A DNA stretch of 64,000 nucleotides from Coriolopsis trogii (taxonomy: Eukaryota > Basidiomycota > Agaricomycetes > Polyporales > Polyporaceae): the NCBI GenBank assembly GCA_020543525.1, contig JAHYIO010000007.1:1178001-1242000 (forward strand). The letters run 5' to 3'. The notes under the pieces were generated by a model, which was not told where the DNA came from, made no database searches, and saw only the letters and a list, made by a program, of their open reading frames with translations. Below are positions 17,978 through 64,000 of the stretch, piece by piece (the stretch's first letter is position 1; each line of letters starts with the position of its first letter). A program made the position numbers and the translations under genes.

Positions 17978-20900
17978 TCAATCACGGTATGTAGCACCGC
18001 GAACAGCAGTGGGGTACTCGCGCTTCTGACGAACCGTCGTCGTGCGAGTCACAGTCGGGGTGATAGTAGAGACCGACGTAACAACCTTTGTCGTCGGCTT
18101 GAAGCTCGTCGCGGTGATCGATGTCGTGCGGGCAGCATTTGCAAACACCGTGGATGTAGCACGCTCTGTAGCGGTCGCGCGGGCAGTAGAGCCACGACCA
18201 AGCGTGGTGGTCTTCGTCACCGTGCTGGTGATCGAGCCTACGGTGACAGTGGTAGTGACGACGGTGGATGTGGTGGACGCGGGTGGTGCGTTGGTGACAG
18301 TCACTGTGACCGTGGAAGGTGTCGAGCTGGTCGAAGTGCTCGAGGTCGTGCTGGTCGCGGACGATGACGTGACCGCACTCTCCGTGGTAGAGGAAGATGC
18401 AGTGTCAGTCGACGATGTCGTCTCGGAGGTGGTCGACGCTACGGTCGTCGAGTCGGAGCTCGTAGACACTTCCTCGGAGACGGTGGTGGCATCTGAAGTT
18501 GTGGAGGCATCCGAAGCCGTGGTCGTAGACTCGGTGGTCGTGGACACATCCGTCGAGCTTGCATCGCTACTGGCAGTAGGGTCACTGGAAGCCGTCGCTG
18601 TTGCGGTCACGTCACTGGTGGTGACGGGAGCGCTACTGGCAGAAGTCTCCACAGTTTCCGTGGCATCTGATGGAATGTCAGCAACTATTCAAACTCGGTC
18701 GAGTTCATGGAAGCGACTCACCCGTCGTTGTCGCGTCCGAAGCAGTGGCCGTCGTGGTAGACGACTCGGTAGCACTTGCATCCACGCTCGAGGTCGATGT
18801 AGCCTCAGACGTAGTCTCCGTGGTAGCCGATGCGGTTGTCTCATCAGAGACAGTTGTCGAGCTGGTAGCAGACGTAGCCGCAGTGGAAGGCGCATCGGTA
18901 GTGGAACTTGCATCTGAGGTGGTGGTATCCGATGTGGTGGCCGCTTCGGAGCTCGTCGTCGTCTCCGTGGTGCCTGAGGACGTGGTCGCGTCCGAGGTGG
19001 TCGTGACGTCCGAAGTCGTGGTGGCTTCCGATGAGGTCGCGGTCTCCGTAGCATCCGACGTGGTAGCCGCATCGCTGCTGGTCGACTCCACCGATGAGGT
19101 AGGTTCAGCAGTAGTAGTCGCGTCCGAGGTGGACGTTGACTCGGTAGCCGACGTGGTCGCGTCCGAGATGGTCGTAACATCCGGAGTCGTGGTAGCCTCC
19201 GATGAGGTCGCGGTCTCCGTAGCATCCGACGTGGTATTCACATCGCTGGTGGTCGACTCGACCGATGAGGTAGGTTCAGTAGTAGTAGTCGCATCTGTGG
19301 TGGTCGCCTCCGAAGTGGTCGTTGCCTCGGTGGTCGTAGCGTCTGAAGCAGTGGTCACCTCGGATGTGCTTGTGGTCTCCGGTGCATCCGGCGTCGAAGT
19401 CACATCGCTAGAGGTCGACTCCACTGAAGAAGTAGACTCAGATGTGGTAACGGCGTCCGTGGAAGTTGCCTCCGAAGTGGTTGACGGAGTAGGCTCCTCT
19501 GTGCTCGTTGTTGAGTCAGAAGTGGGGGTAGGTTCGATAGTGGTCGTCACATCGGAGGTGGCGGTGGTCGCCTCAGTGGTCGACGTAGCCTCAGAAGTGG
19601 CTTCAGAGGTGACCTCGCCATTCGTCGTCGTTGCGTCCACCGTGGTGGTCTCCTCAGTGGTCGTAATCGGGTCCGCCGTCACTGTGGGATCAGCCGACGT
19701 GGTCGCCTCGGTGGTGGTCGACTCAGAAGTGATGGGCTCAGAAGTGGTGGGCTCCGCGACCGACGTCGTCTCCTCAGTAGTAGTCACAGTCGCCGACGTT
19801 GTTGCATCAGTCGACGTCGGATCAGCCGTGACAGTAGACTCCGACGAAGTGGTCTCGTCGGTAACCGTGATCGCGTCCGTCGAAGTGGACGGCTCCGCAG
19901 TTGTCACGTCCGCCGTCGTTGTGGGTTCGGCGGTGGTGGCGGGGTCACTCGTGGTCGCCTCTGAAGTACTGGTGGAGTCCGTGGCTGAAGGCGTCTCGGT
20001 CACGTTAGATGTCGTTGACTCCTCGGTGGCGGTCGAGTCTGCCGTAGTGACCGGGTCCGTCGTGCTCGTCCCTTCTGCAGACGTTGTGGCGTCCGTCGTC
20101 GACGTTACTTCCGAGGTAGTGACATCTGTGGTCGTGGCGGGGCCCGCATCGGTGGTGGTCTCCGCAACGACAGACGTGGTGGATTCCGTGATCTCGGTGG
20201 TCGTCGCTGAAGCAGAAGACTCCTCGCCAACTGCAGTGCTAGTGGTCTCGGGCGATACCTCAGTGGTGGTGACGTCCGAAGATGTCACCTCCGTGGTGGT
20301 AGTCGCATCGGGCTCGCTTGCCTCAGTGGTCGTTGGCACAGTGTCTTATCAAAGTGCGAGTTCAGCAACGAATCGTGAATTAGATCGAGGAGAGTCTCAC
20401 CAGTGGTAGTCTCAGCCGACTCGGAGGATGCAGTCGTCTCCGTGGGCGTGTCCGTGGGAGTCACCTCACCACTAGTAGAGCTGGTCTCACTTGCAGTCTC
20501 GGTAGCGGTGACGTCCGAGGTAGTAGCCGTCTCGGTCGCGGTCACAGTGCTATCGTCGCTGGTCGTCGTCTCAGCGGTGGTAGCAGTCGTGTCAGGGGCA
20601 GTAGCTGTCTCTTCGACTGAGCTCGTCGTAGTGGCGTCTGCACTAGTGGTGGTGGCTTCCTCTGTTGCAGTCGACGTAGCGTCAGAGGTCGTCGTCGCCT
20701 CCGCCGTCTCACTGGACGCCTCAGTCGTGGTAACATCGGCCACAGTCGTCGTCTCTACCGTGGGTTCTGCCGTAGTCGCAGGGTCAGTGGCGGTCGTAGT
20801 CTCCGCCGTGGGCTCTGCGGTGGCCGTAGACTCAGTGTCAGTGGTGGTCTCCTCCACCGTGGTGGTAGCAACGGGTTCCGAGGTCCCAGTCGCGTCCGAG

Positions 20901-23580
20901 GTGGTGGCCACAGTTGTCTCTTCGACAGAGACCGTGGTAGTAGCGTCTGCACTGGCAGTGGTGGATTCCTCGGTCGTGGTTGGGGTTGCCTCAGATGTCG
21001 TCGTCGCCTCCACCGTCTCGGTGGATGCCTCAGTCGTAGTAGCCGTCGTCTCCACCGTGGGCTCTGCGGTAGTCGTAGACTCAGTGGCGGTCGTAGTCTC
21101 TACCGTGGGCTCTGCGGTAGTCGTAGGCTCAGAGTCAGTGGTAGTCTCCTCCGCCGTGGTGGTGGCAACGGGGTCGGAACTCGTCGCAGCCTCCGAAGTG
21201 GTGACCGCACCGTCTGCACTTGTGGTGGTCTCGGCAACGCTCTCGGTCGTCGTACCGTCCGTCGCTGTAACAGCATCGGTGGTGGTAGTAGCAGTTGCAG
21301 CAGCGACGGTGGCCGACTCTGTCGTGGCAGAAACAGTGTTAGTGGTGGTCGGAGCCTCCTCTGATGTCGTCGTGGTGGTCGTCTCAGCGGTGGTGGTGGT
21401 CTCCTCAGCGACAGTAGTGGCGTCCGCCTCTGAGGATGTCGTGGTGTCTGTGGGCGTGGCCTCGACGTCCGAAGTGGTAGTCGTCTCCGCAGGAGCGTCG
21501 GTGACCGTAGCTTCAGACGAGGTCGTTGTCTCGACTGCAGGCGTGGTTTCCGCAGACGCAGAAATTTCAGTCGCAGGGGGGGTGGTGGCAGCAGGGGTCT
21601 CATCAGACACGGTAGTGGCTGTCAAGTAAAGCGGATGATTAGCGGAATGGCAGGTGAAATGACACGTGAGTACGCACCTGCTGCCTCAGTGGTAGTCTCG
21701 GGAGAGGCATCCGTTACGGTAGGCTCTGAGTCAGTTGATGTCTCAGTCTCCGCTGCGACTGTGGTCGTGGGGTCAGCATCTGATGGAGCCGCGTCGGTGG
21801 TCGTCGCCTCAGCTGTCGTAGCAGCAGCAGCCTCAGAAGTTGTTGCTGTCTCGACTGCAGTCTCCTCGCCATCCGAGCTGGTCGTTGCTGTCGTCGTCTC
21901 AGCTGCAGTCTCAGTAGCTTCTGGAGCAGACTCAGTCGTCGTGGCCTCGGCCGTAGTCTCCGGGACCGCAGTCGTTTCCGCCGCGGTGGTCGCCTCAGCG
22001 GTGGTCTCGATCGGCTCGGATGCTGTCTCCGTGACTGTCTCTGTGGCCGTACCTTCACTCGTAGGGGTGACGGTCGCCTCTGTCGTCGTACCTTCGGCAG
22101 CGGTAGTCTCCGTCGTTGTCTCTGCTGCAGCAGCCGTCGTTTCGGCCGTCGTTTCAGCCGTCGTTTCGGCCGTCGTTTCAGCCGTCGTCTCGGCCGTCGT
22201 CTCGGCTGCAGGAGCTTCGTCGGTGGTCGTGGTTGCGTCAGCGGATGTTGTAGGGTCCGCAGCCGGAACCACCTCCGTTGTGTCGGCCGAACCCTCCGTG
22301 GTCGTGGCTGCGTCTGTCGTCTCTGCTGCTTGCGTAGTGGTCGTCTCGGCCACCTCCGTCGGCGCGGGGTCGGCGTCACTGGTGGTGGTAGTCTCAGCAA
22401 TGACCGTAGTACTGCTAGCGTCCGCCTCAGTCGTCGCCGTCTCAGTGTCAGCAGACGCCGTGGTGGTAGGATCGGCGGTGGGGTCAGCCGTCACGGAAGC
22501 CTCAGTTGTTGTGGTGGCGTCAGTCGTCGTCTCAGGATCAGCGGTTGCGGTGGGAGCAGCCGTAGCCTCGGTCGTCGTTGTAGCCTCGACAGTAGTCTCA
22601 GGATCAGCGGCGGCTGTCGTCGCCTCCGTCGTTGTTGCGTCCGTCGTCTCAGCACCAGCGGCATCCGAGGTGGTCGTCGCATCCGCTGTGGTGGTCGTGT
22701 TAGCGTCTGCGGTCGCTGCGGTCGCCTCTGTCGTATCTGCGCTCGTGGTAGCGTCCGCCGTGGTGCCAACTGCCGTGGCCTCCGAAGTTGTGTCTGTTTC
22801 TGCAGTCGCGTCAGCTGTCGTTGTCGCAGCCGCGGCCGGAGCGTCAGTGGTAGTCGTTGCATCGGCAGCGGCAGTCGTGGTATCGGTAGCAGCAGTCGTG
22901 GTCTCAGTGGTGGAATCGGGAGCAGGCGCAGCGTCGGTCGTAGCAGTTGCGTCAGAAGTCGTAGTCGTCTCGGTCGTAGCCGCGCCGCCGGCAGCGGTCG
23001 TGGTCGTGGTCGTCTCAGTCGTGGTCGCATCAGCAGTCGATGCAGTGGTATCGTCAGTCGACGTAGCCGCGGTGGTCTCTGCTGGCGTCTCCACCACAAC
23101 TGTAGTCTCCGTCGTGACTGTCGTACCTGTCGTCGTCGTTGTGTCCGTCACAGTCGCGCCACTAGCATCCGTCGACGTGATCGTGTCGGTGCCTGTTGTC
23201 GTGGATGTGACAACGTTGGTCTCTATAGTTGTGGTATCATTTGAAGAGCCTGTTGGACTACCAGACTCTACGGTCGTGGTATCGTTTGAAGGAGCTGCTG
23301 GACCACCAGCCTCCTCCGAGTCGGGGTCAGAATCCTCCTGCCGAGAAGAGACGAACACCCGCGAGCGGTAGGGTTCGCGCTTGCCGAAGAAAGGTACGGT
23401 GTTGTTGCCATACTGCGACTCGACTCGGTTCGCGAGAGAAGGGCGGATAGCTTGAAGAAACATGCAGTATGAGTTATCCCGAAGTGAAGAATATTCAAGG
23501 ATTGACTGACCTCGTGACTGAACGCCCGAAGAAACAGCAAGGACAACAGTAACAAGAGCCACCAACTTGGGAGAAATCAT
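17978..23580 (-). CDS. giant Ser/Thr-rich secreted mucin-like protein, module A
   Basis: Predicted 1,790 residues from exons 23580-23511, 23450-21678, 21618-20401, 20344-18722 and 18666-17978; every intron is 55-60 bases and phase 1. Order: 23-residue signal peptide (MISPKLVALVTVVLAVSSGV...), a propeptide starting AIRPSLANR and ending FFGKR at residue 48 (Kex2-type site), an acidic Ser/Pro segment with NDT sequons, then some 1,500 residues of imperfect Thr/Ser/Ala/Glu/Asp repeats likely to be heavily O-mannosylated. The C-terminal domain alternates Thr and Val and ends QKR followed by EYPTAVRGATYRD. There is no hydrophobic tail for a GPI anchor. Head to head with the small gene at 24,802; near-identical inverted copy at 59,323; diverged paralogue at 34,415. 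Function unknown; a hyphal surface or matrix role is inference. Confidence 0.85.
18705..19440. repeat. long imperfect tandem repeats inside the giant gene of module A
   Basis: The coding strand repeats a block of about 40 codons with the core EPTSSVEST, then SDATETATSSEATTT. Module C carries one more copy near the right window edge, so the number of units differs between the two otherwise near-identical genes. Confidence 0.65.
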
Positions 23581-23768
23581 GATGGAGTTGCTGGAAAAGA
23601 TTGAATGGAAAGCAATAGAGATAGAGCTGGTGGTTGAGAAGAAAGTGGATGAGAAGAGAATTTGTTGGCTTTACCAGGACAAGCATCCATGTTCTTATAC
23701 TTGCCAGGGCTGCGAGTAGACCATGAAGGACTTCAACGGCACATGTGATGGATGTGTGACGGCTGACT

Positions 23769-23784
23769 GGACCGACATCGGTCC
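23769..23784 (-). promoter_or_regulatory. 16-bp dyad element upstream of giant gene (module A)
   Basis: Read on the giant gene's coding strand: GGACCGATGTCGGTCC, two 7-base inverted arms around TG. It is centred about 196 bases before the giant ATG. The identical 16 bases occur in the same orientation in modules B and C. The factor that would bind is unknown. Confidence 0.6.
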
Positions 23785-23845
23785 TCTACGAACCCCCGAC
23801 CCGCTTGGAGGAGACCTAGAGGGGATGCACAGGTACACTCTCGAC

Positions 23846-23879
23846 GTTGTACATCCGCCTTGCCATTTCGGGTTTACCC
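23846..23879 (-). promoter_or_regulatory. conserved 34-bp promoter block (module A)
   Basis: On the giant-gene strand it begins GGGTAAACCC and ends with GGCGGAT then ACAAC. By eye 27 of 34 positions match the block at 34,138-34,171 in module B, and the spacing to the dyad is about 60 bases in both, although the surrounding DNA is diverged. Confidence 0.5.
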
Positions 23880-24079
23880 AAGGGTGGTTGCAATGGCGTG
23901 ACAGGATCGGCACGTCGGGTCTGTCTTTTTGGATATTGAACCGATCCGAGTCTCGTTCGAGAACGTCGGGCGTGTTATGGATACGTCGGCGGAAGCAGAC
24001 CCGTTGTGGGCCCGTGCCCTGCACCTGGTCGGGTTTGAAAGCCGTCTCGGACGAGTCAGAGACGAGAGGCGAGCAGTCA

Positions 24080-24097
24080 GTCGCTTTCGAAAGCGAC
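24080..24097. promoter_or_regulatory. 18-bp perfect palindrome (module A)
   Basis: GTCGCTTTCGAAAGCGAC is its own reverse complement and sits near the middle of the divergent promoter. It is preserved in module C at 58,806-58,823; I did not find it in module B. It could be a dimeric factor site. Confidence 0.45.
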
Positions 24098-24801
24098 ATG
24101 TAGTGTTCACCTATTCCATAGCGAAGAGAGCCGCATATAACCATAGTATGACTGGGAGGACGAGGTGAACATGACCGCAATGGGAGAGTCGGTGACGAAC
24201 TTGAGAAGAGAAAAGTCGGAGGCGCGCGTAGCTGGCGGTGGTGGCTGTGCATATTGCCCAATACGGACTCTCCGCCACGCATTGGCGCTTACCGTGCTTC
24301 GTAGCGACAACTCCGTCCTTCCACTTCAACTCCTCTGTCATCGGCTCTTACCTCTAGCAAACTCAATACACTCAGTGGCGCACACTTGTTGCTGGCTATT
24401 AGAAGCCGAATGCAGCGACGCTAATGCTTCCAACTCATCGGACACATTAAAGTTTTCCGACCGCCATGGCCCGGGTGGGGTCTGCCCAGCACTCCCCGCT
24501 CCAATCACCTCTCCTTCGAGGCTCGGGACTCTCATCAATGCCTTTGAACATCAGTTCATTGGCATTGGTATCCCCCGTGTTCACTCGGAAGCGTCAGAAT
24601 CTGGTAGGCTCCGAGTCTCTGACGGACCTTACTCATTTGAACGCTTGACTCTTGTCCGACGCACCAACGAGGAGTGCAGCTCCAACCTCTCCAGCGGAGT
24701 TCATTTTGACAGCATATAAGGAAGATCCTTCCAACTCTCTCACTTCACCATTCACTCAACTACCACACACCTACCCATACTCCAGACGCCTCTCTACAAC
24801 A

Positions 24802-25384
24802 ATGTACGCCTTCAAAATCAGCGCAACAGTTTTGCTCGCACTGGCCACCGCCGCAAGTGTTAGCAGCAAAGGTAAGCTCTTCGTTGTTATCCTACCCTCC
24901 ACCCTGTCCGTAGATCAGCAGAGTATCAGAAGTTGACGCATATCTCCTTCTAGCTATTCCCTCGTGGGATGGCGAAGACTTCATCACAAACACCATCTCG
25001 TCGTACTTCCCTGCCACGACCACCGTGACATCCACATTCACGGATGTCGCAAGCCCCTACGAATATTCGCAGTTCGGAAAGCGGCAGAACACGCAGCAGA
25101 CGGTCACGGTGACCGAGACTGCTAGGCCTTCCACCGTCACTGCCGCGAGCACGTCGACAGTGACCCAGTCGGGGACAGTGATCGTGACCGCAACGGCTAC
25201 AGCATACACCACCACGACGTCGACGTCGACGAACACGATCACGAACACCGTGAAGTCGACGACTACGACGACTAGTCTAATCACGAAGACCACGACAAAG
25301 GTTGTACCCACGACTATCACGTCCGTTAAGGTCCGTACGACCACGGGCAAGGCGTCCACGGTCACCGCGACGGTCACTGCCTGA
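24802..25384 (+). CDS. small Thr/Val-rich secreted protein, module A
   Basis: 166 residues from exons 24802-24871 (70 nt) and 24954-25384. The signal peptide MYAFKISATVLLALATAASV... ends in Ser-Lys; mature sequence begins AIPSWDGEDF. A propeptide-like stretch ends FGKR at residue 67, a Kex2-type site. The remainder is almost entirely alternating Thr and Val (TVTVTETARPSTVTAAS, TTKVVPTTITSVKV) and ends TVTATVTA, a pattern expected to form beta strands and to be O-glycosylated. Exon-1 length, intron phase, Ala-Ile start and Lys-Arg site match the giant gene next door, suggesting common ancestry. The copy at 57,519-58,101 encodes the same protein; 32,471-33,019 encodes a diverged one. Function unknown. 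Confidence 0.85.
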
Positions 25385-32470: not shown

Positions 32471-33019
32471 TTAGGCAGTGACCGTTCTGGTGACAGTCGA
32501 CGCCCTGCCCGTGGTCGTGCGGATCCGGGTGGAGGTGATAGTCGAGGGCACGACCTTAGTCGTAGTCCTCGTGATCAGGTTGATAGACGTGGTTGTCGAC
32601 CTCACGGTGTTGGTGATTGTGTTCGTCACCGTCGCGGTCGTAGTGGAGTACGCCGTGGCTGTCGCGGTGACAGTGACCGTCCCAGACTGGGTGACTGTCG
32701 ATGTGCTCGCGGCGGTGACGGTCGACGGAGCAGCGGTCTCAGTCACGGTGACCGTCTGCTGTGCTTCCTGGCGCTTTCCGAACTTCAACACGGCCGCGTC
32801 GGCAGCAACCGTGACGGTGGCCGTGGCAGTAGTCGTCGCGGGGAAGAAGGATGAAATTGTAGAAGTGACGAGGCAATCCTCGTCCCGCGGTATGGCTGGT
32901 GCGCACCCAAATCAGACTCAGGTTTTCTGGAAAGAATGCATACTCTCACCTTTTCCCATGACGCCTGCGCACGATGCGAGCGCCAGTAGCGCCGTAACGC
33001 TGATCTTGCGGATAAACAT
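32471..33019 (-). CDS. small Thr/Val-rich secreted protein, module B
   Basis: 164 residues from exons 33019-32950 (again 70 nt) and 32895-32471. Signal peptide MFIRKISVTALLALASCAGV..., mature start AIPRDEDCLVTSTISSFFPA, Kex2-type site FGKR at residue 65, then a Thr/Val-alternating tail closely matching module A (TVTVTETAAPSTVTAAS, TTKVVPSTITSTRIRTTTG) and ending TVTRTVTA. The pre-site region is diverged from module A while the tail is conserved. It faces away from the giant module B gene, repeating the head-to-head arrangement. The extra Cys at residue 31 is absent from module A. Function unknown. Confidence 0.85.
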
Positions 33020-34137
33020 GGGGTAGGCGACTGGTGGGGAGATGGACGGTGTGAGCGTAGAAGAGGCAAGAACGCTGACTGGGAGTTTGGTTTGCAATTG
33101 GACTGCAACTATCCTATATATCTTGACAGTCTTGCATCCGCGCACAGTCAGGTCTTCAGAGAAGGGCTCTCGATTGGATGGTGAGATGCACGCCAGAACT
33201 GCCATATGCGTTGGATCCGCTGGAGCGCACTGGATGAGTCTCCGAGAGCAGCACCAGCCGCCGGGGTCGACACCGAAGCGGCGGCAATCGGCGACTTGTC
33301 ATGCCCGCCGAGACGATGGAATTCTCGAAGGGAGTAGGTGTGGACATAGGAGCAGCGCATCAGGGGAGGCTCAGGCCGATCTTACGAGTGATCTTGACGA
33401 ACTGGGATAGCCTCGAAGGGGAGTGGCCGACGACAATCGTGCCTCTGAATAGATGCAAAGATATGCGACCAATCACAGCTGTAATTTGGCACCTCCTGTG
33501 CCCATCGCGGGCTTGAGTTGAAGAGTTGCGGAGTATTGCCTGCACCGCACGTGTTGAATGTCCCTTGAGATTGACATGAGCCGAAGGCACACAGCGGAGA
33601 GCGGAGCCTGATCTTCAAACGACTGCCTTGGGATGGGCATGGGCATTTCGGCGAAGTCCAGGACGCCCGATTGGAAGGTGCATGCGGCTCGGGAGTCGGT
33701 CGAAGTCGACGCACAGATCGACTTGTCGTTGTATAAGCGCCAGTGGTTGTACAGCGGACAGTCCAAATTAAGTAATGGGACACAGCCACCGGTATCACGT
33801 ATGCAAGCGCCAAGCCAAGTTTCTGTCATCGACCAACTTCAGGGCTACATCCAACCGCATGCTGAATCCGCTCCTCCATGCCATGTGCGCTGCACACGTT
33901 TTTGTATCAGATTACCACATATAATCACTAATCACCAGTCGCACTGGCCATGTCCAAGTCGCCTTCGAAATACAACCGCACGTGGCTGCGGGTACATACA
34001 GCCTACCAAAGGAGGTCTGCTTCCGCCGCGCCCATTGGAAACGTATCCGAGATCTTTGCAGTCGATTCCGATCGCTCCAGTCACCCAATGCGACAATCTC
34101 GACCTGCGGATCCGGTAGCGTCGATGAGACTGGCAGA

Positions 34138-34171
34138 GGGTAAATCCAAAACGGAAGGGCGGATAAACAAC
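34138..34171 (+). promoter_or_regulatory. conserved 34-bp promoter block (module B)
   Basis: Begins GGGTAAATCC and ends GGCGGAT then ACAAC; the counterpart in modules A and C is in the same orientation relative to the giant gene and lies the same 60 bases from the dyad. Confidence 0.5.
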
Positions 34172-34231
34172 TCGGTATGCGTTCCTGGATTGCTCCACTA
34201 AATCGAGCGGAAGTGTTCTGGGCTCAATGGA

Positions 34232-34247
34232 GGACCGATGTCGGTCC
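34232..34247 (+). promoter_or_regulatory. 16-bp dyad element upstream of giant gene (module B)
   Basis: GGACCGATGTCGGTCC, identical to modules A and C and centred about 176 bases before the giant ATG. Conservation of all 16 bases in otherwise diverged promoter DNA suggests function. Confidence 0.6.
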
Positions 34248-34414
34248 CTTCAGCTCTCCCAATCCAATGACTCTGCTGTCGTCGAAGATCATTGAAGTCC
34301 AGCACGGGGCAATTGCGACACTGGGGGGTATATATGCTCTGACATTTCGTCTAGATCTTTCACCACATCTTTTCTCATCCTCTTTCCTTCTACCATCCTT
34401 CGAAACACGCGACC

Positions 34415-37400
34415 ATGATTTCCCCAAAATTGGTCGCTTTTGTGAGTGTAGTGTTGGCTGTGACTGCAGGTGTGCAGCCTAGAGGTACGTTCTATCCGCC
34501 TACCTCCTCGTCACAGTATTCACCTTCTCCTTTCCAGCCATTCGTTCTTCCCCACTTCCCGACCTTGTCGATTCGAAGTACGCCAACGTTACAGCGTCAT
34601 ACGTACCGAAGCGCGAGACCTATCACCCTCGCTCATTCGTCGTCCCACGTCAGGATGAGGAACCGGACCCGGACGCCCCTGATCCAGACGCCGATCCGAA
34701 TGCCGACCCAACCACATCGACGGAGACAAACGTTGTTACGGTTACCACTACCGCGACCGAGACGACTACCACCACCAATGCTGCTGGCGCGGAAGTGACT
34801 GACACGACGACCACCACTGGTACCACTGTGACGACAGAAACGACCGTTGTGGTTGAGACGCCGGCGGAGACCGGTGCGGCCACCACTGACGCAACCACCA
34901 CGACGGCCGCGGCCGGTGGCGAGACGACGACTGAGACGACAGAAACGACTACCACCGCCGCTGACGGCGCCGCTACGACTGAGACGACGGCTGCAACCAC
35001 GGCTGCCACGACCGACGCTACGACTGAGACTACTCCTGCCGCCAACGAAACGACTGCCGCAACGACGGACGCTACGACTACCACAGACGCGGCAGGCGGA
35101 GAGACGACTGAAGCGACGACCGCGACGACCACCACCGGCGCAGCAGGTGGCGAGACTACAGATGCGACGACAGCCACCACCACTACAGACGCGGGGGGTG
35201 CAGAGACGACCGACGCGACTACAGCCACGACTACCACCGATGCAGCTGGTGGGGAGACTACCGAGGCCACGACAGCTACCACCACCACCGCTGCGGCTGG
35301 TGAGGAGACCACTGAGGCCACGACAGCTACCACCACCACCGCCGCGGCCGGAGAGGAGACCACTGAGGCAACGACAGCGACGACCACAACGGACGCTGCG
35401 GGCGCCGAGACCACAGAGGCTACAACGGCGACCACGACTACCGACGCTGCAGGTGGTGAGACTACGGAAGCGACCACGACCACTACTACAACGGACGCGG
35501 CAGGTGAAGAGACCACTGAAGCGACTACCGCCACGACCACTACAGACGCAGCGGGTGGGGAGACTACCGAAGCCACGACGACCACGACCGAGGCTGGCGC
35601 GGGGGGTGCGGAGACGACCGACGCGACCACTGCCACGACTACCACCGATGCAGCTGGTGGGGAGACCACCGAGGCGACTACGACCACCGCCGCAGCTGGT
35701 GAGGAGACCACTGAGGCAACGACAGCGACAACCACCACGGACGCTGCGGGCGCCGAGACCACAGAGGCTACAACGGCGACCACGACAACCGACGCTGCAG
35801 GTGGTGAGACTACGGAAGCGACCACGACCACTACTACAACGGACGCGGCAGGCGAAGAGACCACTGAAGCGACTACCGCCACGACCACTACAGACGCAGC
35901 GGGTGGGGAGACTACCGAAGCCACGACGACCACGACCGAAGCTGGCGCGGAGACCACTGAGGCCACGACAGCGACCACCACCACTGACGCAGCGGGGGCC
36001 GAGACGACAGATGCCACCACGGCAACGACTACCACAGACGCGGCGGGTGAGGAGACTACCGAGGCAACGACTGTGACAACCACCACAGACGCGGCAGGTG
36101 AGGAGACCACCGTGGCAACGACGGCAACCACTACCACAGACGCATCGGGTGCGGAGACCACAGACGCGACCACGGCGACGACCACCACCGATGAAACGGG
36201 TGCCGAGACGACCGAGGCCACCACGGCGACGACCACCACCGACGCGGCTGGTACGGAGACGACTGAGGCAACGACAGCGACGACGACCACCGACGCTGCA
36301 GGTGGTGAGACGACGGAGGTGACTACCACCACTACAGACGTGTCTGGTGCGGAGACGACAGACGCGACCACCGCCACAACCACTACAGACGCCACAGGTG
36401 CGGAGACGACCGAGGCCACCACGGCCACCACCACCACCGACGCGGCCGGCACAGAGACGACTGAGGCAACGACGGCGACTACCACTACTGATGCTGCAGG
36501 TGGTGAGACGACGGAGGTGACCACCACCACTACAGACGCGACCGGTGAAGAGACCACCGAGGCGACAACGGCAACTACCTCCACAGATGCCGCGGGTGTT
36601 GAAACCACGGATGCGACAACGGCGACGACCACCACGGATGCATCAGGTGGCGAGACTACTGAAGTCACCACTGCGACGACCACCGCCGACGAGACAGGCG
36701 CTGAGACGACCGAAGCTACTACGGCGACGACCACTACCGACGCTGCTGGCACTGAGACGACTGAAGCGACGACGGCGACCACCACCACTGATGCTACAGG
36801 CGGTGAGACCACGGAAGCGACCACCACCACCACAGATGCGACAGGCGCAGAGACGACTGAAGCAACAACGGCGACGACCACCACCGACGCCGCTGGTACT
36901 GAGACGACTGAGGCAACGACGGCGACCACCACTACCGACGCTTCAGGCGGTGAAACTACGGATGCGACCACGGCCACGACTACCACAGACGCAACAGGTG
37001 CGGAGACGACAGACGCGACCACCGCCACAACCACTACAGACGCCACAGGTGCGGAGACGACCGAGGTCACGACGGCCACTACAACTACAGATGCAGCTGG
37101 TTCGGAGACAACAGAGGCGACCACAGCTACGACCTCCGTCGATGCAACAGGTGTGGAAACTACGGAAGTGACCACCACCACAATCACAGCAGGTATGCAT
37201 GATCGCACAACTTCATATCATTGTACTCACGGATATTATCAGACCCAGATGCCACTACCTCTACGACGGACGCTAACCCCACCGTCACTGCCGACCCTAC
37301 ATCGGTTACGACTACGTCCGAGGATCCTACCTCTACCGAGGTATCTACCGAAACTACCTCTGGTGCGGATGGGGAAACGACCACGACAGAGACGACAACG

Positions 37401-40400
37401 ACATCAGACGGCACGACGACTGTTTCTGAAGAGACTACCACCACCGGTGCGGACGCCACTACCACGTCCACCGTTGAAGAAACGTCTACTGGCACGGAAA
37501 TAACGGCTACCACCACTGAGACTACGAGCAGTGACGATAGCACGGTGACGGCGACTGAGACGGCCACTACCACTGACGGTACTGCTACGGAGACTGTGTC
37601 TGAGACGACCACTAGCGCCGATGGTGAGGTGACAACGACAGAGACCTCTACTACGGAGACAGCGACTGGTGAGTATTCGAATGTGTTTGTTTAGGCTTCC
37701 ACTAAGAACCACATGTTACAGAACCTGTCACAACCACCACGGATGCTCCTGCCACTACTACGTCGACCACCACTGAGGCGACGACTTCGGATGAATCTAC
37801 AACCGACATACCGACTGAGACGACGACCACCGATGCCGATCCTACCACGTCATCTGATGTCACTACCACCGATACCACGACGACCACCGATGTAACGACC
37901 ACTGTCGACCCGACGACCACGTCAGAGCCGACGACAGTCGTAGACCCCACAACTACCGAAGAGACGACTTCGGAGGTGACGGAGACAACCTCTACCGCGG
38001 ACGGCACGACTTCTTCAGAGGCGACGACTACTGAGGTTACTACCAGTGCTGATCCCACAACGACTTCAGAGTCATCAACAGTGGTTGAGACGACGAGCTC
38101 GGCAGACCCGACTACAGTCACCGAAGAAACTACCACGTCTGAAGTGACGTCCACAACCGACGCGTCTACATCTGAAGCGACAACTTCCACAGTCGTAGAG
38201 AGTACCACCGACGCCGACCCCACCACGTCGACCGATGTCACCACTACTACGTCTGATGTGACCACGACGACTACTGAAGCGACGACCACATCGGAAGCGA
38301 CTGTCACCGATGGCACGACCACTACGGAGGCCAGCACGACTGAAGTCACTACCACCGAAACGACGACCACTGCGGATCCCACGACTGTGGAGACGACTAC
38401 CACGGCAGATCCGACCACAGTCACAGAGGAGACGACTACGTCTGAAACAACGTCCACGACCGACGCGTCGACCACTGATGCGACAACGGTCACTATTCCA
38501 GAGACTACCACCGACGTCCCAACGACAACCACCGATGCCACAACCACCACTTCCGACGCGACGACGACTGCTGATCCATCTACTTCCGATGCGACGACTT
38601 CTTCGGAGGTGACGGAGACGACTTCTACCTCGGACGGCACGACTACCACTGAGGCGACGACAACCGAGGTTACCACTACTGCTGATCCGACAACCACAGT
38701 GGATCCGACAACCGTGGATCCCACGACCACTGTAGACCCGACAACCGTCACAGAGGAGACTACCACGTCGGTGACGACGACCGCTGACCCGTCAACTACA
38801 GTTGACCCTACCACCTCTGATGCGACTACGACTCCAGAGGCCACGGAAACCACTACGACTGCGGACGCAACTACTACTTCAGACGTGACAACGACATCGG
38901 ACGCCACTACCACATCAGATGTATCCACAACGTCGGAACCGACTACGTCAGAGACCATAGTGACTACTTCTGAGACTACGTCTACCACATCCGACGTCAC
39001 ATCAACAGGTGAGTCGGGCTTATAAGGCCAGTTTGAGTTTATTCTGACCCTCTCTTTTTAGACACCACGACCATTGCAACGACCTCTACAGCCAGCGATC
39101 CGACGAGCACGGACTCCACCACTTCCGCAGAAACGACTTCAGATGGAACCACTACGACCACAGATGTGACTACGACGTCTGACGGTACCACCACGTCCGC
39201 AACTACATCCGACTCGACCAGCACGTCGGAGGCCACCACAATAACGTCTGATTCGACCACCGTGACGTCGGAGACGACGACGACCACATCTGATGGAACG
39301 ACGACGACCTCTGAAACTACAACCACGTCGATCAGCGATCCGACAAGCACGGAGTCGACCTCGGACGGCAGCACTACCACATCGGATGTGTCTACGACGT
39401 CAGACGCCACCACCACATCTGCGACCACATCCGATTCGACCAGCACGTCTGAGGCGACTACAATCACTTCTGATTCGACCACCGTGACGTCGGAGACGAC
39501 CACCACCACCTCCGACGGGACGACGACGACCTCCGAGGTTACAACCACGTCGAGCAATGACCCCACAAGCACGGAGTCGACCACTTCCGCAGAGACGACC
39601 TCGGACGGAACCACAACGACATCGGACGTTACCACGACGTCGGACGCTACCACCACTACTGCTACCACATCCGACCCGACGAGCACTTCGGAGGCTACCA
39701 CTACAACGTCCGACTCGACCACCGTGACGTCGGAGACGACCACAACCACCTCTGATGGGACGACGACGACTTCTACAACTACGTCGAGCACCGACCCCAC
39801 GAGCACGGAGTCGACCACTACCGCAGAGACGACTTCGGACGGAACCACAACAACATCGGATGTTACCACGACGTCGGACGCTACCACCACTACTGCTACC
39901 ACATCCGACCCGACGAGCACTTCGGAGGCTACCACCATAACGTCCGACTCGACCACTGTGACGTCGGAGACAACGACTTCCACCGGTACCGATGCAACGA
40001 CCACAGTCTCTGAGACTACATCGACTTCTGAGACTGACAGCGAACCTACGAGCACGGAGCCGACGACTTCCGACGAGACCACAACGGAGACCACTGGTGA
40101 GTAACATTAAGTTTCAATGTCCCAATGAAGGAATTTAACCACTCTATTATGTAGCTACTACGGACACGTCGACCACTGATGTTACTACTACGTCGGATGT
40201 GAGCACTTCTTCCACTCCCACCACGACTTCGACTACGACTTCTACCACTCCCACCACGACATCGACCACACCCACCACAACATCAACGACGTCCACCTCC
40301 ACCACCACGACCACACCTGCCACTGTTACCGTTACGGTAACCTCATCGGAGCCCGCGGTTACGCGCTCTACCGTCGTTACCACCACAGTTACAGTAGGAT

Positions 40401-40651
40401 CTGTCACCAGCACGGTGACCAGGACCACCACGCTCGCTCGTGGCTCGACTGCGCGTGCAACAGCTACCGCCCGCGTGACGAGCACTGTGTTCGCATCCGC
40501 TGCGCGCACGACTTCGATCACCGCGACGAGTTTCCGGCCCACGACAAAGGTGGTCACGTCGGTGTCAACCGTCCGCCCGACAGTCACCCGCACGACGACC
40601 ATCCGCCGTAGGCGCGAGTACCCGACTGCCATCCGCGGCGGTGGCTACTAG
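34415..40651 (+). CDS. giant Ser/Thr-rich secreted mucin-like protein, module B
   Basis: Predicted 1,989 residues from exons 34415-34484, 34538-37192, 37243-37668, 37722-39008, 39062-40096 and 40155-40651; all introns are phase 1. The signal peptide MISPKLVAFVSVVLAVTAGV... is nearly that of modules A and C. A propeptide AIRSSPLPDLVDSKY ends PKR at residue 49. An acidic DPD-rich stretch follows, then a segment shared with the other giants (TTTTTGTTVTTETTVVVETP). Exon 2 encodes about 42 tandem 17-residue units; exons 3-5 encode looser Thr/Ser repeats. The C-terminal domain (TSITATSFRPTTKVVTSVST) matches module A and ends RRRREYPTAIRGGGY after a basic cluster. No GPI signal is seen. One more exon than modules A and C have so far. 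Function unknown; a heavily O-glycosylated hyphal surface protein is inferred. Confidence 0.87.
35095..37192 (+). repeat. 51-bp tandem repeat array encoding 17-residue units
   Basis: About 42 units in frame, consensus GxETTEATTATTTTDAA, with occasional 14-15-residue short units. Two blocks of roughly 250 bases, near 35,354-35,605 and 35,701-35,950, are almost identical, including the same short units, so several units were duplicated together recently. The array occupies nearly all of exon 2 of the giant module B gene. Confidence 0.85.
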
Positions 40652-46667: not shown

Positions 46668-46824
46668 TGCTGCGACTAGCTGGACTTCGGGACTCGGTAC
46701 GACTCAAAGATCTGTCTTGACTGTACGATACATTCGCTCGTGGTCCTGGATACCGACGTTGTATTGTATTGCCTCTGTCAAACGTCTCCCTGATGGTACT
46801 CTCGTCGAAGTGGATGGTTGTGTT

Positions 46825-57518: not shown

Positions 57519-58101
57519 TCAGGCAGTGACCGTCGCGGTGACCGTGGACGCCTTGCCCGTGGTCGTACGGACCTTAACGGACGTGATAGTCGTGGGTACA
57601 ACCTTTGTCGTGGTCTTCGTGATTAGACTAGTCGTCGTAGTCGTCGACTTCACGGTGTTCGTGATCGTGTTCGTCGACGTCGACGTCGTGGTGGTGTATG
57701 CTGTAGCCGTTGCGGTCACGATCACTGTCCCCGACTGGGTCACTGTCGACGTGCTCGCGGCAGTGACGGTGGAAGGCCTAGCAGTCTCGGTCACCGTGAC
57801 CGTCTGCTGCGTGTTCTGCCGCTTTCCGAACTGCGAATATTCGTAGGGGCTTGCGACATCCGTGAATGTGGATGTCACGGTGGTCGTGGCAGGGAAGTAC
57901 GACGAGATGGTGTTTGTGATGAAGTCTTCGCCATCCCACGAGGGAATAGCTAGAAGGAGATATGCGTCAACTTCTGATACTCTGCTGATCTACGGACAGG
58001 GTGGAGGGTAGGATAACAACGAAGAGCTTACCTTTGCTGCTAACACTTGCGGCGGTGGCCAGTGCGAGCAAAACTGTTGCGCTGATTTTGAAGGCGTACA
58101 T
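57519..58101 (-). CDS. small Thr/Val-rich secreted protein, module C
   Basis: Exons 58101-58032 and 57949-57519 encode 166 residues identical to the module A protein: same signal peptide (MYAFKISATVLLALATAASV...), AIPSWDGEDF start, FGKR site and TVTATVTA end. Translations in other frames, including the opposite strand, are also the same, so the nucleotide sequences are essentially identical, including silent positions. That points to a very recent duplication or to continuing gene conversion. Head to head with the giant gene at 59,323. Confidence 0.85.
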
Positions 58102-58805
58102 TGTTGTAGAGAGGCGTCTGGAGTATGGGTAGGTGTGTGGTAGTTGAGTGAATGGTGAAGTGAGAGAGTTGGAAGGATCTTCCTTATATGCTGTCAAAAT
58201 GAACTCCGCTGGAGAGGTTGGAGCTGCACTCCTCGTTGGTGCGTCGGACAAGAGTCAAGCGTTCAAATGAGTAAGGTCCGTCAGAGACTCGGAGCCTACC
58301 AGATTCTGACGCTTCCGAGTGAACACGGGGGATACCAATGCCAATGAACTGATGTTCAAAGGCATTGATGAGAGTCCCGAGCCTCGAAGGAGAGGTGATT
58401 GGAGCGGGGAGTGCTGGGCAGACCCCACCCGGGCCATGGCGGTCGGAAAACTTTAATGTGTCCGATGAGTTGGAAGCATTAGCGTCGCTGCATTCGGCTT
58501 CTAATAGCCAGCAACAAGTGTGCGCCACTGAGTGTATTGAGTTTGCTAGAGGTAAGAGCCGATGACAGAGGAGTTGAAGTGGAAGGACGGAGTTGTCGCT
58601 ACGAAGCACGGTAAGCGCCAATGCGTGGCGGAGAGTCCGTATTGGGCAATATGCACAGCCACCACCGCCAGCTACGCGCGCCTCCGACTTTTCTCTTCTC
58701 AAGTTCGTCACCGACTCTCCCATTGCGGTCATGTTCACCTCGTCCTCCCAGTCATACTATGGTTATATGCGGCTCTCTTCGCTATGGAATAGGTGAACAC
58801 TACAT

Positions 58806-58823
58806 GTCGCTTTCGAAAGCGAC
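58806..58823. promoter_or_regulatory. 18-bp perfect palindrome (module C)
   Basis: GTCGCTTTCGAAAGCGAC, unchanged from module A at the mirrored position. Confidence 0.45.
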
Positions 58824-59118
58824 TGACTGCTCGCCTCTCGTCTCTGACTCGTCCGAGACGGCTTTCAAACCCGACCAGGTGCAGGGCACGGGCCCACAAC
58901 GGGTCTGCTTCCGCCGACGTATCCATAACACGCCCGACGTTCTCGAACGAGACTCGGATCGGTTCAATATCCAAAAAGACAGACCCGTGGGGCCGATCCT
59001 GTCACGCCATTGCAACCACCCTTGGGTAAACCCGAAATGGCAAGGCGGATGTACAACGTCGAGAGCGTACCTGTGCATCCCCTCTAGGTCTCCTCCCAGC
59101 AGGTCGGGGGTTCGTAGA

Positions 59119-59134
59119 GGACCGATGTCGGTCC
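59119..59134 (+). promoter_or_regulatory. 16-bp dyad element upstream of giant gene (module C)
   Basis: GGACCGATGTCGGTCC at the position mirrored from module A, about 196 bases before the giant ATG. Confidence 0.6.
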
Positions 59135-59322
59135 AGTCAGCCGTCACACATCCATCACATGTGCCGTTGAAGTCCTTCATGGTCTACTCGCAGCCCTGGC
59201 AAGTATAAGAACATGGATGCTTGTCCTGGTAAAGCCAACAAATTCTCTTCTCATCCACTTTCTTCTCAACCACCAGCTCTATCTCTATTGCTTTCCATTC
59301 AATCTTTTCCAGCAACTCCATC

Positions 59323-62300
59323 ATGATTTCTCCCAAGTTGGTGGCTCTTGTTACTGTTGTCCTTGCTGTTTCTTCGGGCGTTCAGTCACGAGGTCAGTCA
59401 ATCCTTGAATATTTTTCACTTCGGGATAACTCATTCTGCATGTCTCTTCAAGCTATCCGCCCTTCTCTTGCGAACCGAGTCGAGTCGCAGTACGGCAACG
59501 ACACCGTACCTTTCTTCGGCAAGCGCGAACCCTACCGCTCGCGGGTGTTCGTCTCTTCTCGGCAGGAGAATTCGGACCCCGACTCGGAGGAGGCTGGTGG
59601 TCCAGCAGCTCCTTCAAACGATACCACGACCATAGAGTCTGGTAGTCCAACAGGCTCTTCAAATGATACCACAACCATAGAGACCAACGTTGTCACATCC
59701 ACGACAACAGGCACCGACACGATCACGTCGACGGATGCTAGTGGCGCGACTGTGACGGACACAACGACGACGACAGGTACGACAGTGACGACGGAGACCA
59801 CAGTTGTGGTGGAGACGCCAGCAGAGACCACCGCGGCTACGTCGACTGACGATACCACTGCATCTGCCGATGCGACCACGACTGAGACGACCACGACCAC
59901 GACCGCTGCCGGCGGCGCGGCTACGATCGAGACGACTTCTGACGCAAGTGCTACGACCGACGCTGCGCCTGCTCCCGATTCCACCACCGAGACCACGACT
60001 GCTGCTGCCGATACAACGACTGCTGCTGCCGATACTACGACTGCCGCTACCGATACCACGACTGCCGCTGCCGATGCAACGACTACCACTGACGCTCCGG
60101 CCGCGGCTGCGACAACGACAGCTGACGCGACCGCAGAAACAGACACAACTTCGGAGGCCACGGTAGTTGGCACCACGGCGGACGCTACGACGAGCGCAGA
60201 TACGACAGAGGCGACCGCAGCAACCGCAGACGCTAACACGACTACCACAGCGGATGCGACGACCACCTCGGATGCCGCTGGTGCTGAGACGACGGACGCA
60301 ACAACGACGGAGGCGACGACAGCCGCCGCTGATCCTGAGACTACTGTTGAGGCTACAACGACGACCGAGGCTACGGCTGCTCCCACCGCAACCGCTGATC
60401 CTGAGACGACGACTGATGCCACCACAACAGCTGAGGCTTCCGCGGATCCCACCGTGACAGCTGACCCTACTGCTGAGCCCTCCACCACGGCGTCTGCTGA
60501 CACTGAGACGGCAACCACCGAGGCGGATGCCCCGGGTACTACGATAGTCACTGAAACCACTACCACTAGTGACGCGGAGCCTGCGCCGACGGAGGTGGCC
60601 GAGACAACTACTACGCAAGCAACAGAGACGACAGACGCGGCCACGACCACGGAGGGTTCGGCCGACACAACGGAGGTGGTTCCGGCTGCGGACCCTACAA
60701 CATCCGCTGACGCAACCACGAGCACCGACGAAGCTCCTGCAGCCGAGTCGACCACTGAGACGACGGCCGAAACGACGGCTGCTGCAGCAGAGACAACGAC
60801 GGACACTACCGCTGCCGAAGGTACGACGACAGAGGCGACCGTCACCCCTACGAGTGAAGGTACGGCCACAGAGACAGTCACGGAGACAGCATCCGAGCCG
60901 ATCGAGACGACTGCTGAGGCGACCACCGCGGCGGAAACGACTGCGGTCCCGGAGACTACGGCCGAGGCCACGACGACTGAGTCTGCTCCAGAAGTTACTG
61001 AGACTGCAGCTGAGACGACGACAGCAACGGCCAGCTCGGATGGCGAGGAGACTGTAGTCGAGACAGCAACAACTTCTGAGGCTGCTGCTGCTACGACAGC
61101 TGAGGCGACGACCACCGACGCGGCTCCATCAGATGCTGACCCCACGACCACAGTCGCAGCGGAGACTGAGACGTCAACTGACGCAGAGCCTACCGTGACG
61201 GATGCCTCCCCCGAGACTACCACTGAGGCAGCAGGTGCGTACTCACGTGTCATTTCACCTTCCATTCCGTTGATCATCCGCTTTACATGACAGCCACTAC
61301 GGTGTCTGAAGAGACCCCTGCTGCCACCACCCCCGCGACTGAAACTTCTGCATCTGCGGACACCACGCCTGCAGTCGAGACAACGACCTCGTCTGAAGCC
61401 ACGGTTACTGACGCTCCTGCGGAGACGACTACCACTTCGGACGTCGAGGCCACGCCCACAGACACCACGACGTCCTCAGAGGCGGACGCCACTACTGTTG
61501 CTGAGGAGACCACCACCACCGCTGAGACGACCGCCACGACGACATCAGAGGAGGCTCCAACCACTACTGACACTGTTTCTGCCACGACAGAGTCGGCTAC
61601 CGTCGCTGATGCAACTGCTACCACCACCACCGATGCTGTTACAGCGACGGACGGTACGACGACCGAGAGCGTTGCCGAGACCACCACAAGTGCAGACGGT
61701 GCGGTCACTACCTCGGAGGCTGCGACGAGCTCCGACCCCGTTGCCACCACCACGGCGGAGGAGACTACCACTGACTCTGAGCCTACGACTACCGCAGAGC
61801 CCACGGTAGAGACTACGACCGCCGCTGATTCTACGACTACCGCAGAGCCCACGGTGGAGACGACGGCTACTACGACTGAGGCATCCACCGAGACGGTAGA
61901 GGAGACGACGACATCTGAGGCAACCCCAACCACGACCGAGGAATCCACCACTGCCAGTGCGGACGCTACTACCACGGTCTCTGTCGAAGAGACAACTGTG
62001 GCCACCACCTCGGACGCGACTGCGACCTCGGAACCCGTTGCTACCACCACGGTGGCGGAGACCACCACTGACGCTGAGTCTACGGCCACCGCAGAGCCCA
62101 CGGTAGAGACTACGACCGCCACTGACCCTGCGACTACGGCAGAACCCACGGTAGAGACGACGACTGTGGCCGATGTTACCACGACTGAGGCGTCCACTGA
62201 GACGGCGGAGGCGACGACGACCTCTGACGCTACGTCGACTGCAACAGAGGAAGCCACCACCACTAGTGCAGATGCGACTACGACGAGCTCAGTTGAAGAG

Positions 62301-64000
62301 ACAGCTACTGCCCCTGACACGACTGCTACCACCGCTGAGACGACGACCAGCGACGATAGCACTGTGACCGCGACCGAGACGGCTACTACCTCGGACATCA
62401 CCGCCACCGAGACCGCAAGTGAGACCAGCTCTACTACTAATGGTGAGGTGACTCCCACGGACACGCCCACGGAGACGACTGCATCCTCCGAGTCGGCTGA
62501 GACTACCACTGGTGAGACTCTCCTCGATCTAATTCACGATTCGTTGCTGAACTCGCACTTTGATACAGACGCTGTGCCAACGACCACTGAGGCAAGCGAG
62601 CCCGATGCGACTACCACCAGGGAGGTGACATCTTCGGACGCCACCACCACTGAGGTATCGCCCGAGACCACTAGCACCGCAGTTAGCGAGGAGTCTTCTG
62701 CTTCAGCGACGACCACCGAGATCACGGAATCCACCACGTCTGTCGTTGCGGAGACTACCACCGATGCGGGCCCCGCCACGACCACAGATGTCACTACCTC
62801 GGAAGTGACGTCGACGACGGACGCCACAACGTCTGCAGACGCGACGAGCACGACGGACTCGGTCACTACGGCAGACTCGACCGCTACCGAGGAGTCAACG
62901 ACATCTAACGTGACCGAGACGCCTTCAGTTACGGACTCCACCAGTACTTCAGAGGCGACCACGAGTGACCCCGCCACCACCGCCGAACCCACAACGACGG
63001 CGGACGTGACAACTGCGGAGCCGTCCACTTCGACGGACGCGATCACGGTTACCGACGAGACCACTTCGTCGGAGTCTACTGTCACGGCTGATCCGACGTC
63101 GACTGATGCAACAACGTCGGCGACTGTGACTACTACTGAGGAGACGACGTCGGTCGCGGAGCCCACCACTTCTGAGCCCATCACTTCTGAGTCGACTACC
63201 ACCGAGGCGACCACGTCGGCTGATCCCACAGTGACGGCGGACCCGATTACGACCACTGAGGAGACCACCACGGTGGACGCAACGACGACGGATGGCGAGG
63301 TCACCTCTGAAGCCACTTCTGAGGCTACGTCGACCACTGAGGCGACCACCGCCACCTCCGATGTGACGACCACTATCGAACCTACCCCCACTTCTGACTC
63401 AACAACGAGCACAGAGGAGCCTACTCCGTCAACCACTTCGGAGGCAACTTCCACGGACGCCGTTACCACTTCTGAGTCTACTTCTTCAGTGGAGTCGACC
63501 TCTAGTGATGTGACTTCGACGCCGGATGCACCGGAGACCACAAGCACATCTGAGGTGACCACTGCTTCAGACGCTACGACCACCGAGGCAACGACCACTT
63601 CGGAGGCGACTACCACAGATGCGACTACTACTACTGAACCTACCTCATCGGTTGAGTCGACCACCAGCGATGTGACTACCACGTCGGATGCTACGGAGAC
63701 CGCGACCTCATCGGAGGCTACCACGACTCCGGATGTTACGACCACCTCGGACGCGACCACGTCGGCTACCGAGTCAACGTCCACCTCAGATGCGACTACT
63801 ACTGCTGAACCTACCTCATCGGTGGAGTCGACCAGCAGCGATGTGACTACTACGTCGGATGCTACAGAGACCGCGACCTCATCGGAGGCTACCACGACTC
63901 CGGACGTTACGACCACCTCGGACGCGATGTCGGCTACCGAGTCAACTTCTACGGATGCGATTACCACTGCTGAACCTACCTCTTCAGTGGAGGCGACCAC
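59323..64000 (+). CDS. giant Ser/Thr-rich secreted mucin-like protein, module C (3' end off window)
   Basis: Exons 59323-59392, 59453-61234, 61294-62511 and 62569 onward; the last runs off the right edge, so the C-terminal domain is not seen. Signal peptide and propeptide match module A, including FFGKR. Compared with A, exon 2 is 9 bases longer: C has extra AAADTTT units near 60,000-60,070 but fewer ETTA units near 60,740-60,780, so both gain and loss of repeats occurred. Exon 3 has the same length. The acceptor before exon 4 reads ATACAG here but ATAAG in A. Exon 4 carries an additional copy of the EPTSSVE block near the edge. Role as for module A: unknown, probably a secreted or wall-associated glycoprotein. 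Confidence 0.85.

What the first reader, a model, noticed from the sequence alone, without database searches (positions are those of the whole stretch)
17978..64000. Three copies of a head-to-head gene pair: giant mucin-like protein plus small Thr/Val-rich partner
At 17,978-25,384, 32,471-40,651 and 57,519-64,000+ the same two genes face away from a shared 1.2-1.4 kb promoter. Module B is diverged in sequence yet keeps the arrangement, so the pairing has been maintained and is probably functional. The partners may be co-expressed and interact in the hyphal wall or matrix. I know of no described system with this two-gene composition.
Basis: partly seen in the sequence, partly recalled or inferred. 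Interest (0 to 1): 0.9.

Follow-up and report, generated by a model that had tools for sequence, protein, structure and literature searches.

The report
Paired fungal mucin and partner genes
A fungus, probably a wood-decayer, carries several copies of a back-to-back pair of genes, one for a huge, strongly negatively charged, threonine-rich secreted protein and one for a small positively charged secreted partner, which may together form part of the material around its cells.

Summary
Window modules A, B and C are divergent pairs of intact, spliced genes around a 1.2-1.4 kb intergenic region. The 38.8 Mb genome has five intact pairs (A-E, contig C7) and one decayed pair (F, contig C30); no unpaired relative was found. 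A and C are not independent: they are 96% identical and mosaic, as expected from exchange between copies; D and E likewise 95%. B is old (dS about 1 or more) and still paired. Both partners are under purifying selection. The giant has a signal peptide, a dibasic site, a polyacidic Thr/Ser-rich middle almost without Lys/Arg, a basic conserved tail and a second dibasic site before a conserved 11-14 residue end. The small partner is basic and Thr/Val-rich. Changes to Lys/Arg in the middle are selected against (1 of 171 differences, about 15 expected). A 15-base near-palindrome between the genes has four exact genome matches, all in modules. Best reading: a two-component secreted polyanion/polycation matrix. 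Pairing is shown; co-expression, interaction and conservation in other species could not be tested. Pfam, PDB and a protein set that may lack fungi gave no relative.

The parts
17978..23580 (-). Giant gene A, 1790 aa, 5 exons (23511-23580, 21678-23450, 20401-21618, 18722-20344, 17978-18666)
   Evidence: Spliced model without internal stop; signal peptide, dibasic sites at residues 47 and 1776
23581..24801 (.). Shared intergenic region of A (1221 bases)
23769..23783 (-). GACCGATGTCGGTCC element of A, 189-203 bases before the giant ATG
23987..24001 (-). GGTCTGCTTCCGCCG element of A
24802..25384 (+). Small gene A, 166 aa, exons 24802-24871 and 24954-25384
32471..33019 (-). Small gene B, 164 aa, one intron after the signal peptide
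33020..34414 (.). Shared intergenic region of B (1395 bases)
34014..34028 (+). GGTCTGCTTCCGCCG element of B
34233..34247 (+). GACCGATGTCGGTCC element of B, 168-182 bases before the giant ATG
34415..40651 (+). Giant gene B, 1989 aa, 6 exons (34415-34484, 34538-37192, 37243-37668, 37722-39008, 39062-40096, 40155-40651); 51-base repeat array 35050-37134
57519..58101 (-). Small gene C, 166 aa, protein identical to A
58102..59322 (.). Shared intergenic region of C (1221 bases)
58902..58916 (+). GGTCTGCTTCCGCCG element of C
59120..59134 (+). GACCGATGTCGGTCC element of C, 189-203 bases before the giant ATG
59323..64000 (+). Giant gene C, 1717 aa, 4 exons, runs past the window end (stop at window-equivalent 64652)

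Best explanation
Each module encodes a two-component secreted material. Shown from sequence: two intact genes always found as a divergent pair; both proteins begin with a signal peptide followed by an intron at the same place and then a dibasic (Kex2-type) site; the giant's middle holds a run of 980-1833 residues without Lys/Arg, has a net charge of about -219 to -318 and is about half Thr/Ser; its tail is basic and a short stretch after the first dibasic site carries 2-3 Arg; the mature small protein is basic (net +5 or +6) and about 40% Thr; neither shows a membrane span or a GPI-type end. Inferred: the secretory route cuts both at the dibasic sites, the Thr/Ser are O-mannosylated, the giant leaves the cell as a long polyanionic bottle-brush with a basic sticky tail, and the small basic protein made with it binds and cross-links it by charge into a gel, sheath or adhesive around hyphae. 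The shared intergenic region would keep the two in step. Repeat turnover changes giant length while the ends stay fixed, and exchange between copies keeps them alike.
For: 6 of 6 copies paired, 5 of 6 intact. Opposite charges of middle and small partner. Longest Lys/Arg-free runs 1652, 1833, 980, 1263 and 1251 residues in A-E. Of 171 amino acid differences in the middles (A/C 111, D/E 60) only 1 involves Lys/Arg against about 15 expected at kappa 2 (9.9 and 5.1; P 0.0004 and 0.005). dN/dS 0.05-0.18 for the mature small protein (6 distinct pairs), 0.07-0.28 for the tail (10 pairs) and 0.09-0.24 for the head (10 pairs), against 0.36 and 0.51 for the middle (A/C, D/E). Conserved giant-side stretch in A, B, D, E (61-65%, E 1e-21 to 1e-42 in five comparisons). 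GACCGATGTCGGNCC has 4 exact hits in the genome, all in modules.
Against: No expression, cleavage, binding or localisation data. The mature small protein carries only 5-6 net charges against hundreds on the giant, so it would have to be made in large excess. No detectable homology between small protein and tail (hhalign probability 1.6%). Val/Thr alternation in small protein and tail is not above shuffled sequence, and the AlphaFold models are too poor to use (mean pLDDT 45.5 and 34.8, two-sequence alignments). The intergenic region is conserved mainly on the giant side; the small side gave only weak matches (E 0.005 and 0.035). The small propeptide of D/E has dN/dS 0.69, on six changes.
Confidence: 0.42

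Rival explanations
1. Linked but independent: two secreted surface proteins that happen to be neighbours, copied and exchanged as a block; the pair is retained because exchange runs across the whole homologous block, not because the products work together.
For: Homology between D and E starts at the small gene's stop and ends about 100 bases past the giant's stop, and flanks are unrelated: the block is the unit of exchange. The conserved intergenic stretch lies mainly on the giant side.
Against: B is old (dS about 1 and more to the others in small gene and head), yet both its partners are intact and constrained; no singleton was found.
Confidence: 0.27
2. Precursor of a peptide signal: cutting at the second dibasic site frees a conserved C-terminal peptide of 11-14 residues (EYPTAVRGATYRD in A, EYPTAIRGGGY in B, DDQPTAIRGGSYWQ in C, DDYPTAIRGGSYWQ in D, DAYPTAIRGGSYWQ in E), and the mucin is a carrier.
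For: PTA-[IV]-RG-x-x-Y is conserved in all five intact tails, and KR/RR sites lie only near the two ends of each giant.
Against: One peptide copy per precursor of 1385-1989 residues is wasteful; it does not explain avoidance of single Lys/Arg through the middle, nor the partner.
Confidence: 0.12
3. Cation or mineral binder: the acidic middle binds calcium or other metals, for example to steer calcium oxalate crystals on hyphae.
For: 219-318 acidic residues in each middle.
Against: In the printed B middle acidic residues mostly sit singly or in twos among Thr, not in long runs; no neighbouring gene found here points to oxalate; a basic partner is not needed.
Confidence: 0.08
4. Variable surface adhesin or recognition protein, with repeat turnover and copy exchange generating diversity.
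For: Tandem arrays (51 bases, 41 copies, in B; 171 bases in A and C; 297 bases in A) and mosaic copies.
Against: No GPI-type or membrane anchor and no adhesin domain in Pfam; the ends and the small protein are conserved, not diversifying.
Confidence: 0.11

Closest known systems
Secreted gel-forming mucins of animals (recalled)
   Same: Very long secreted Thr/Ser-rich middle between two conserved ends
   Different: No Cys at all in the giants, so no disulphide-linked end domains; a separate small basic partner
Msb2-type fungal signalling mucins (recalled)
   Same: Thr/Ser-rich fungal secretory protein
   Different: Msb2 has a membrane span; none here
Kex2-processed repeat proteins and Rep1 (PMC6339444, passages read)
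   Same: Signal peptide and dibasic sites; Rep1 peptides are said there to control hyphal wall properties of a basidiomycete
   Different: That survey required at least three similar fragments between cleavage sites; here KR/RR sites sit only near the two ends
GPI, PIR and hydrophobin wall proteins (recalled)
   Same: Secreted fungal surface proteins, Thr/Ser-rich or small
   Different: No hydrophobic C-terminus, no PIR motif, no eight-Cys pattern
Oppositely charged protein pairs of marine worm and mussel glues (recalled)
   Same: A polyanionic and a polycationic secreted partner that could condense together
   Different: No sequence link known; no condensation shown here

Membership tests
Gel-forming mucin | Long Thr/Ser-rich middle | tested here: met
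   Thr+Ser 50-57% of the middle in 5 giants
Gel-forming mucin | Cys-rich end domains for disulphide linking (recalled) | tested here: not met
   0 Cys in 5 of 5 giants; no Pfam family at E up to 0.1 in 5 giant exon frames
Msb2-type signalling mucin | Transmembrane segment (recalled) | tested here: not met
   Best 19-residue hydropathy mean after residue 35 is 0.78-0.95 in 5 giants, against 1.88-1.96 in the signal peptide
Kex2-processed repeat protein | At least three similar fragments between KR/RR or KK sites (PMC6339444) | tested here: not met
   KR/RR only near the two ends in 5 of 5 giants; one site in each small protein
GPI-anchored wall protein | Hydrophobic C-terminal tail (recalled) | tested here: not met
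   Last 30 residues of the giants: best hydropathy mean -0.98 to -0.28; small proteins after residue 30: best 0.58-1.06
PIR wall protein | Q-[IVL]-x-D-G-Q-[IVP]-Q repeats (motif recalled) | tested here: not met
   0 in 5 giants
Hydrophobin | Eight Cys in a fixed pattern (recalled) | tested here: not met
   0 Cys in small A, C, D, E; 2 in small B, signal peptide included
Co-regulated bidirectional gene pair | Conserved divergent arrangement with a conserved intergenic region | tested here: met
   6 of 6 copies divergent; conserved intergenic stretch and element, mainly on the giant side
Co-regulated bidirectional gene pair | Correlated expression | not testable with these tools
   No transcript data
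Polyanion/polycation material | Oppositely charged mature partners | tested here: met
   Middle -219 to -318 and tail +8 to +13; mature small protein +5 or +6
Polyanion/polycation material | The partners bind and condense | not testable with these tools
   Needs purified proteins

The most novel reading that the evidence does not exclude
A previously undescribed fungal two-component extracellular material: a length-variable polyanionic mucin with a basic sticky tail and its dedicated basic cross-linker, kept as one inseparable divergent gene unit under its own control element and renewed by exchange between inverted copies.
Probability: 0.35. Interest if true: 0.75.

Novelty: new variant of a known kind. 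Interest (0 to 1): 0.5.

Why it matters
What holds hyphae together and to wood outside the glucan wall is, to my knowledge, poorly known at the protein level. A strictly paired polyanion/polycation gene unit gives a concrete, testable candidate, shows how low-complexity proteins of unknown function can be read through selection on charge and through pairing, and could be a model for water-based biological glues.

Tried and rejected
Homologues elsewhere: protein set, single small protein (0 of 1417 candidates at E 0.001), small alignment (0 of the 7992 candidates scored at E 1), last-exon alignment (0 of the 7988 scored at E 0.01); viral contigs (26 pattern matches, 0 confirmed); PDB sequences (0 for both alignments at E 1); Pfam (one search gave three weak matches, Gaa1 at 0.26, Big_3_2 at 0.038 and DUF7504 at 0.009, all under their cut-offs; none). 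This genome's own small protein did not appear in the protein set either, so these misses say little about other fungi.

A common origin of small protein and giant tail was considered because both are basic and Thr/Val-rich and both genes have the same first intron; hhalign gave no support. Beta-strand alternation was tested and not found above shuffles. AlphaFold models (A and B sequences only) were too poor for a fold search, so none was run. Movement of the module as a transposon was considered; the edges show no clear target duplication by eye, and near-identity that gives way to older divergence inside a homologous stretch fits exchange between copies better. Literature: seven word searches gave nothing on such a pair and one found the Kex2-repeat papers; I saw listings with the starts of abstracts, and passages of PMC6339444.

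In one search only matches over 150 bases were printed, and the A/B row of 4500 identical bases is an overlap of my own two cut-outs and was dropped. Small-gene introns were taken as the first pair of sites that fitted, not scored.

Full report
What was checked. The window is contig C7:1178001-1242000 of a 38.8 Mb genome in 39 contigs. Its neighbours include GH10 exons with a CBM1, a GH79 C-terminal domain and F-box-like proteins and, just beyond the window, a laccase exon. Together with short introns this points to a wood-decay basidiomycete; that placement is my inference, no call names the species.

Gene models. Giant A has 1790 residues, B 1989, C 1717, D 1397 and E 1385, in 4 to 6 exons with GT-AG introns and no internal stop; the small proteins have 166 residues (A, C, D, E) or 164 (B), and those of A and C are identical. 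In both partners the first intron falls just after the signal peptide, 70 bases into the coding sequence, and the next residues are Ala-Ile. In A/C and D/E, differences along the giant frame are commonest at third codon positions (185 of 324 and 52 of 113), so the long opposite-strand frames are best seen as by-products of Thr-rich coding.

Copies. Whole-genome searches with the A small protein and the A tail found A, B, C, D and E on C7 and a remnant F on C30; the A head found the five on C7 only. F keeps the divergent order, but by eye its small gene is shifted in frame and has no signal-peptide exon, and its giant lacks the head and most of the middle. Repeats with the B small protein and the D tail at E up to 10 gave the same places plus one hit at E 0.39. 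Thus 6 of 6 detected copies are paired and 5 of 6 are intact. The tool calls its counts lower bounds. The C7 end carries TTAGGG repeats, so the pairs lie about 80-250 kb from a telomere.

History. A/C are 95.9% identical over 6511 aligned bases and D/E 95.0% over 6426, both as inverted pairs. The flanks compared (several kb on each side) share no match over 150 bases except two between D and E that do not lie beside the same ends. D/E homology starts at the small gene's stop and ends about 100 bases past the giant's stop. Along A/C, 1350 bases over the small gene and most of the intergenic region are 100% identical, the windows through most of the giant are 94-100% with one at 81%, and the last kilobase drops to 44-72%. 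In D/E the end of the small gene is lower (83-85%) than the rest. Trees conflict: small gene and giant head join A with C (SH-aLRT/bootstrap 99.4/100 and 98.9/97), the tail joins C with D and E (100/100), leaving A with B. The simplest account is gene conversion between inverted copies. So A and C are not two independent confirmations, but B is: its dS to the others is about 1.0 in the small gene, 0.96-1.46 in the tail and 1.5-3.0 (near saturation) in the head.

Selection. dN/dS for the mature small protein is 0.05-0.18 over the six distinct pairs, for the tail 0.07-0.28 and for the head 0.09-0.24 over ten pairs each; for the middle it is 0.36 (A/C) and 0.51 (D/E); the small propeptide ranges 0.13-0.22 where it can be computed, except D/E at 0.69 on six changes. 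The middle is therefore looser in sequence but not free in charge: Lys/Arg-free runs reach 1652, 1833, 980, 1263 and 1251 residues in A-E, and only 1 of 171 amino acid differences involves Lys/Arg, where mutation alone would give about 15 (A/C 9.9 of 111, D/E 5.1 of 60 at kappa 2; P 0.0004 and 0.005; with kappa 4, 8.8 and 4.5, P 0.001 and 0.009). This test treats differences as independent single changes, which conversion, repeat turnover and multiple changes weaken (59 of 111 and 56 of 60 differ by one base).

Architecture. Giants: signal peptide, short propeptide ending in KR at residues 47-48 (B 48-49), a short stretch with 2-3 Arg, then the acidic Thr/Ser middle (net -219 to -318), then a conserved tail of about 112 residues with net charge +8 to +13, which ends after a second dibasic site in a conserved peptide with PTA[IV]RG. 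No Cys, no membrane-like segment after the signal peptide, no hydrophobic C-terminus, no PIR motif. Small proteins: signal peptide, KR at 66-67 (B 64-65), mature part of 99 residues with net +5 or +6 and 39-43% Thr. Pfam, PDB and structure prediction gave nothing usable. The two proteins are not detectably homologous to each other.

Control region. Intergenic lengths are 1221, 1395, 1221, 1339 and 1323 bases in A-E. On the giant side 387-496 alignment columns match between A or B and the others at 61-65% (five of the six comparisons of A, B, D, E, with E 1e-21 to 1e-42; the sixth, D/E, is 92.5% throughout); C was left out there, being 97-100% like A over this region. The small side gives only weak matches (A/E 0.005, A/D 0.035), and a central 61-base stretch matches between A and D at 80%. 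In the giant-side part of the alignment of A, B and D (481 columns) the longest invariant run is 12 columns, reached in 39 of 20000 column shuffles; it is GACCGATGTCGG. The element GACCGATGTCGGNCC lies 168-211 bases before each giant ATG. It has four exact matches in the genome, in modules A, B, C and D; E has one mismatch, and 15 other one-mismatch sites exist genome-wide against 7 matches for the reversed control pattern. A second element, GGTYTGCTTCCGCSG, is exact in all five modules and at two other places; with one mismatch it has 32 sites against 22 for the control, so it is not specific. The first element would suit a Zn2Cys6-type factor (recalled, CCG-N4-CGG), but no binding was tested, and its effect on the small gene is inferred.

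Reading. The shown facts are pairing, age, selection on both products, opposite charges, and a conserved intergenic region. The step from there to a two-component matrix held by charge is inference, put at 0.42. The main rival is that the genes are linked passengers of one exchange block (0.27). A peptide precursor, a mineral binder and a variable adhesin remain open. Membership in known families was tested feature by feature and failed for Msb2-type mucins, Kex2-processed repeat proteins (criterion read in passages of PMC6339444), GPI and PIR wall proteins and hydrophobins; gel-forming mucins fit in the middle but not at the ends.

Limits. That I found no description in print rests, which search open-access text by words only.

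Noticed in passing
L028:5400-6820 (contig C30): Decayed sixth pair F: divergent order kept, small gene shifted in frame and without a signal-peptide exon, giant without head and most of the middle.
   Followed up: partly
window 12108-14020: GH10 exons with a CBM1.
   Followed up: no
window 25793-26464: GH79 C-terminal domain on the minus strand, converging on small gene A.
   Followed up: no
L038:329-1051: Laccase exon about 2.6 kb beyond the end of giant C.
   Followed up: partly
window 4372-4493 and 53988-54109: A 122-base stretch repeated at 78.7% identity, outside the modules.
   Followed up: no
L029 end (contig C7 1445781): Contig ends in TTAGGG repeats, a telomere.
   Followed up: yes
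flanks of D and E (L034-L037, L025, L026): A stretch of about 500 bases, 65.5% alike, lies about 2.5 kb beyond D's giant end but beside E's small end.
   Followed up: no
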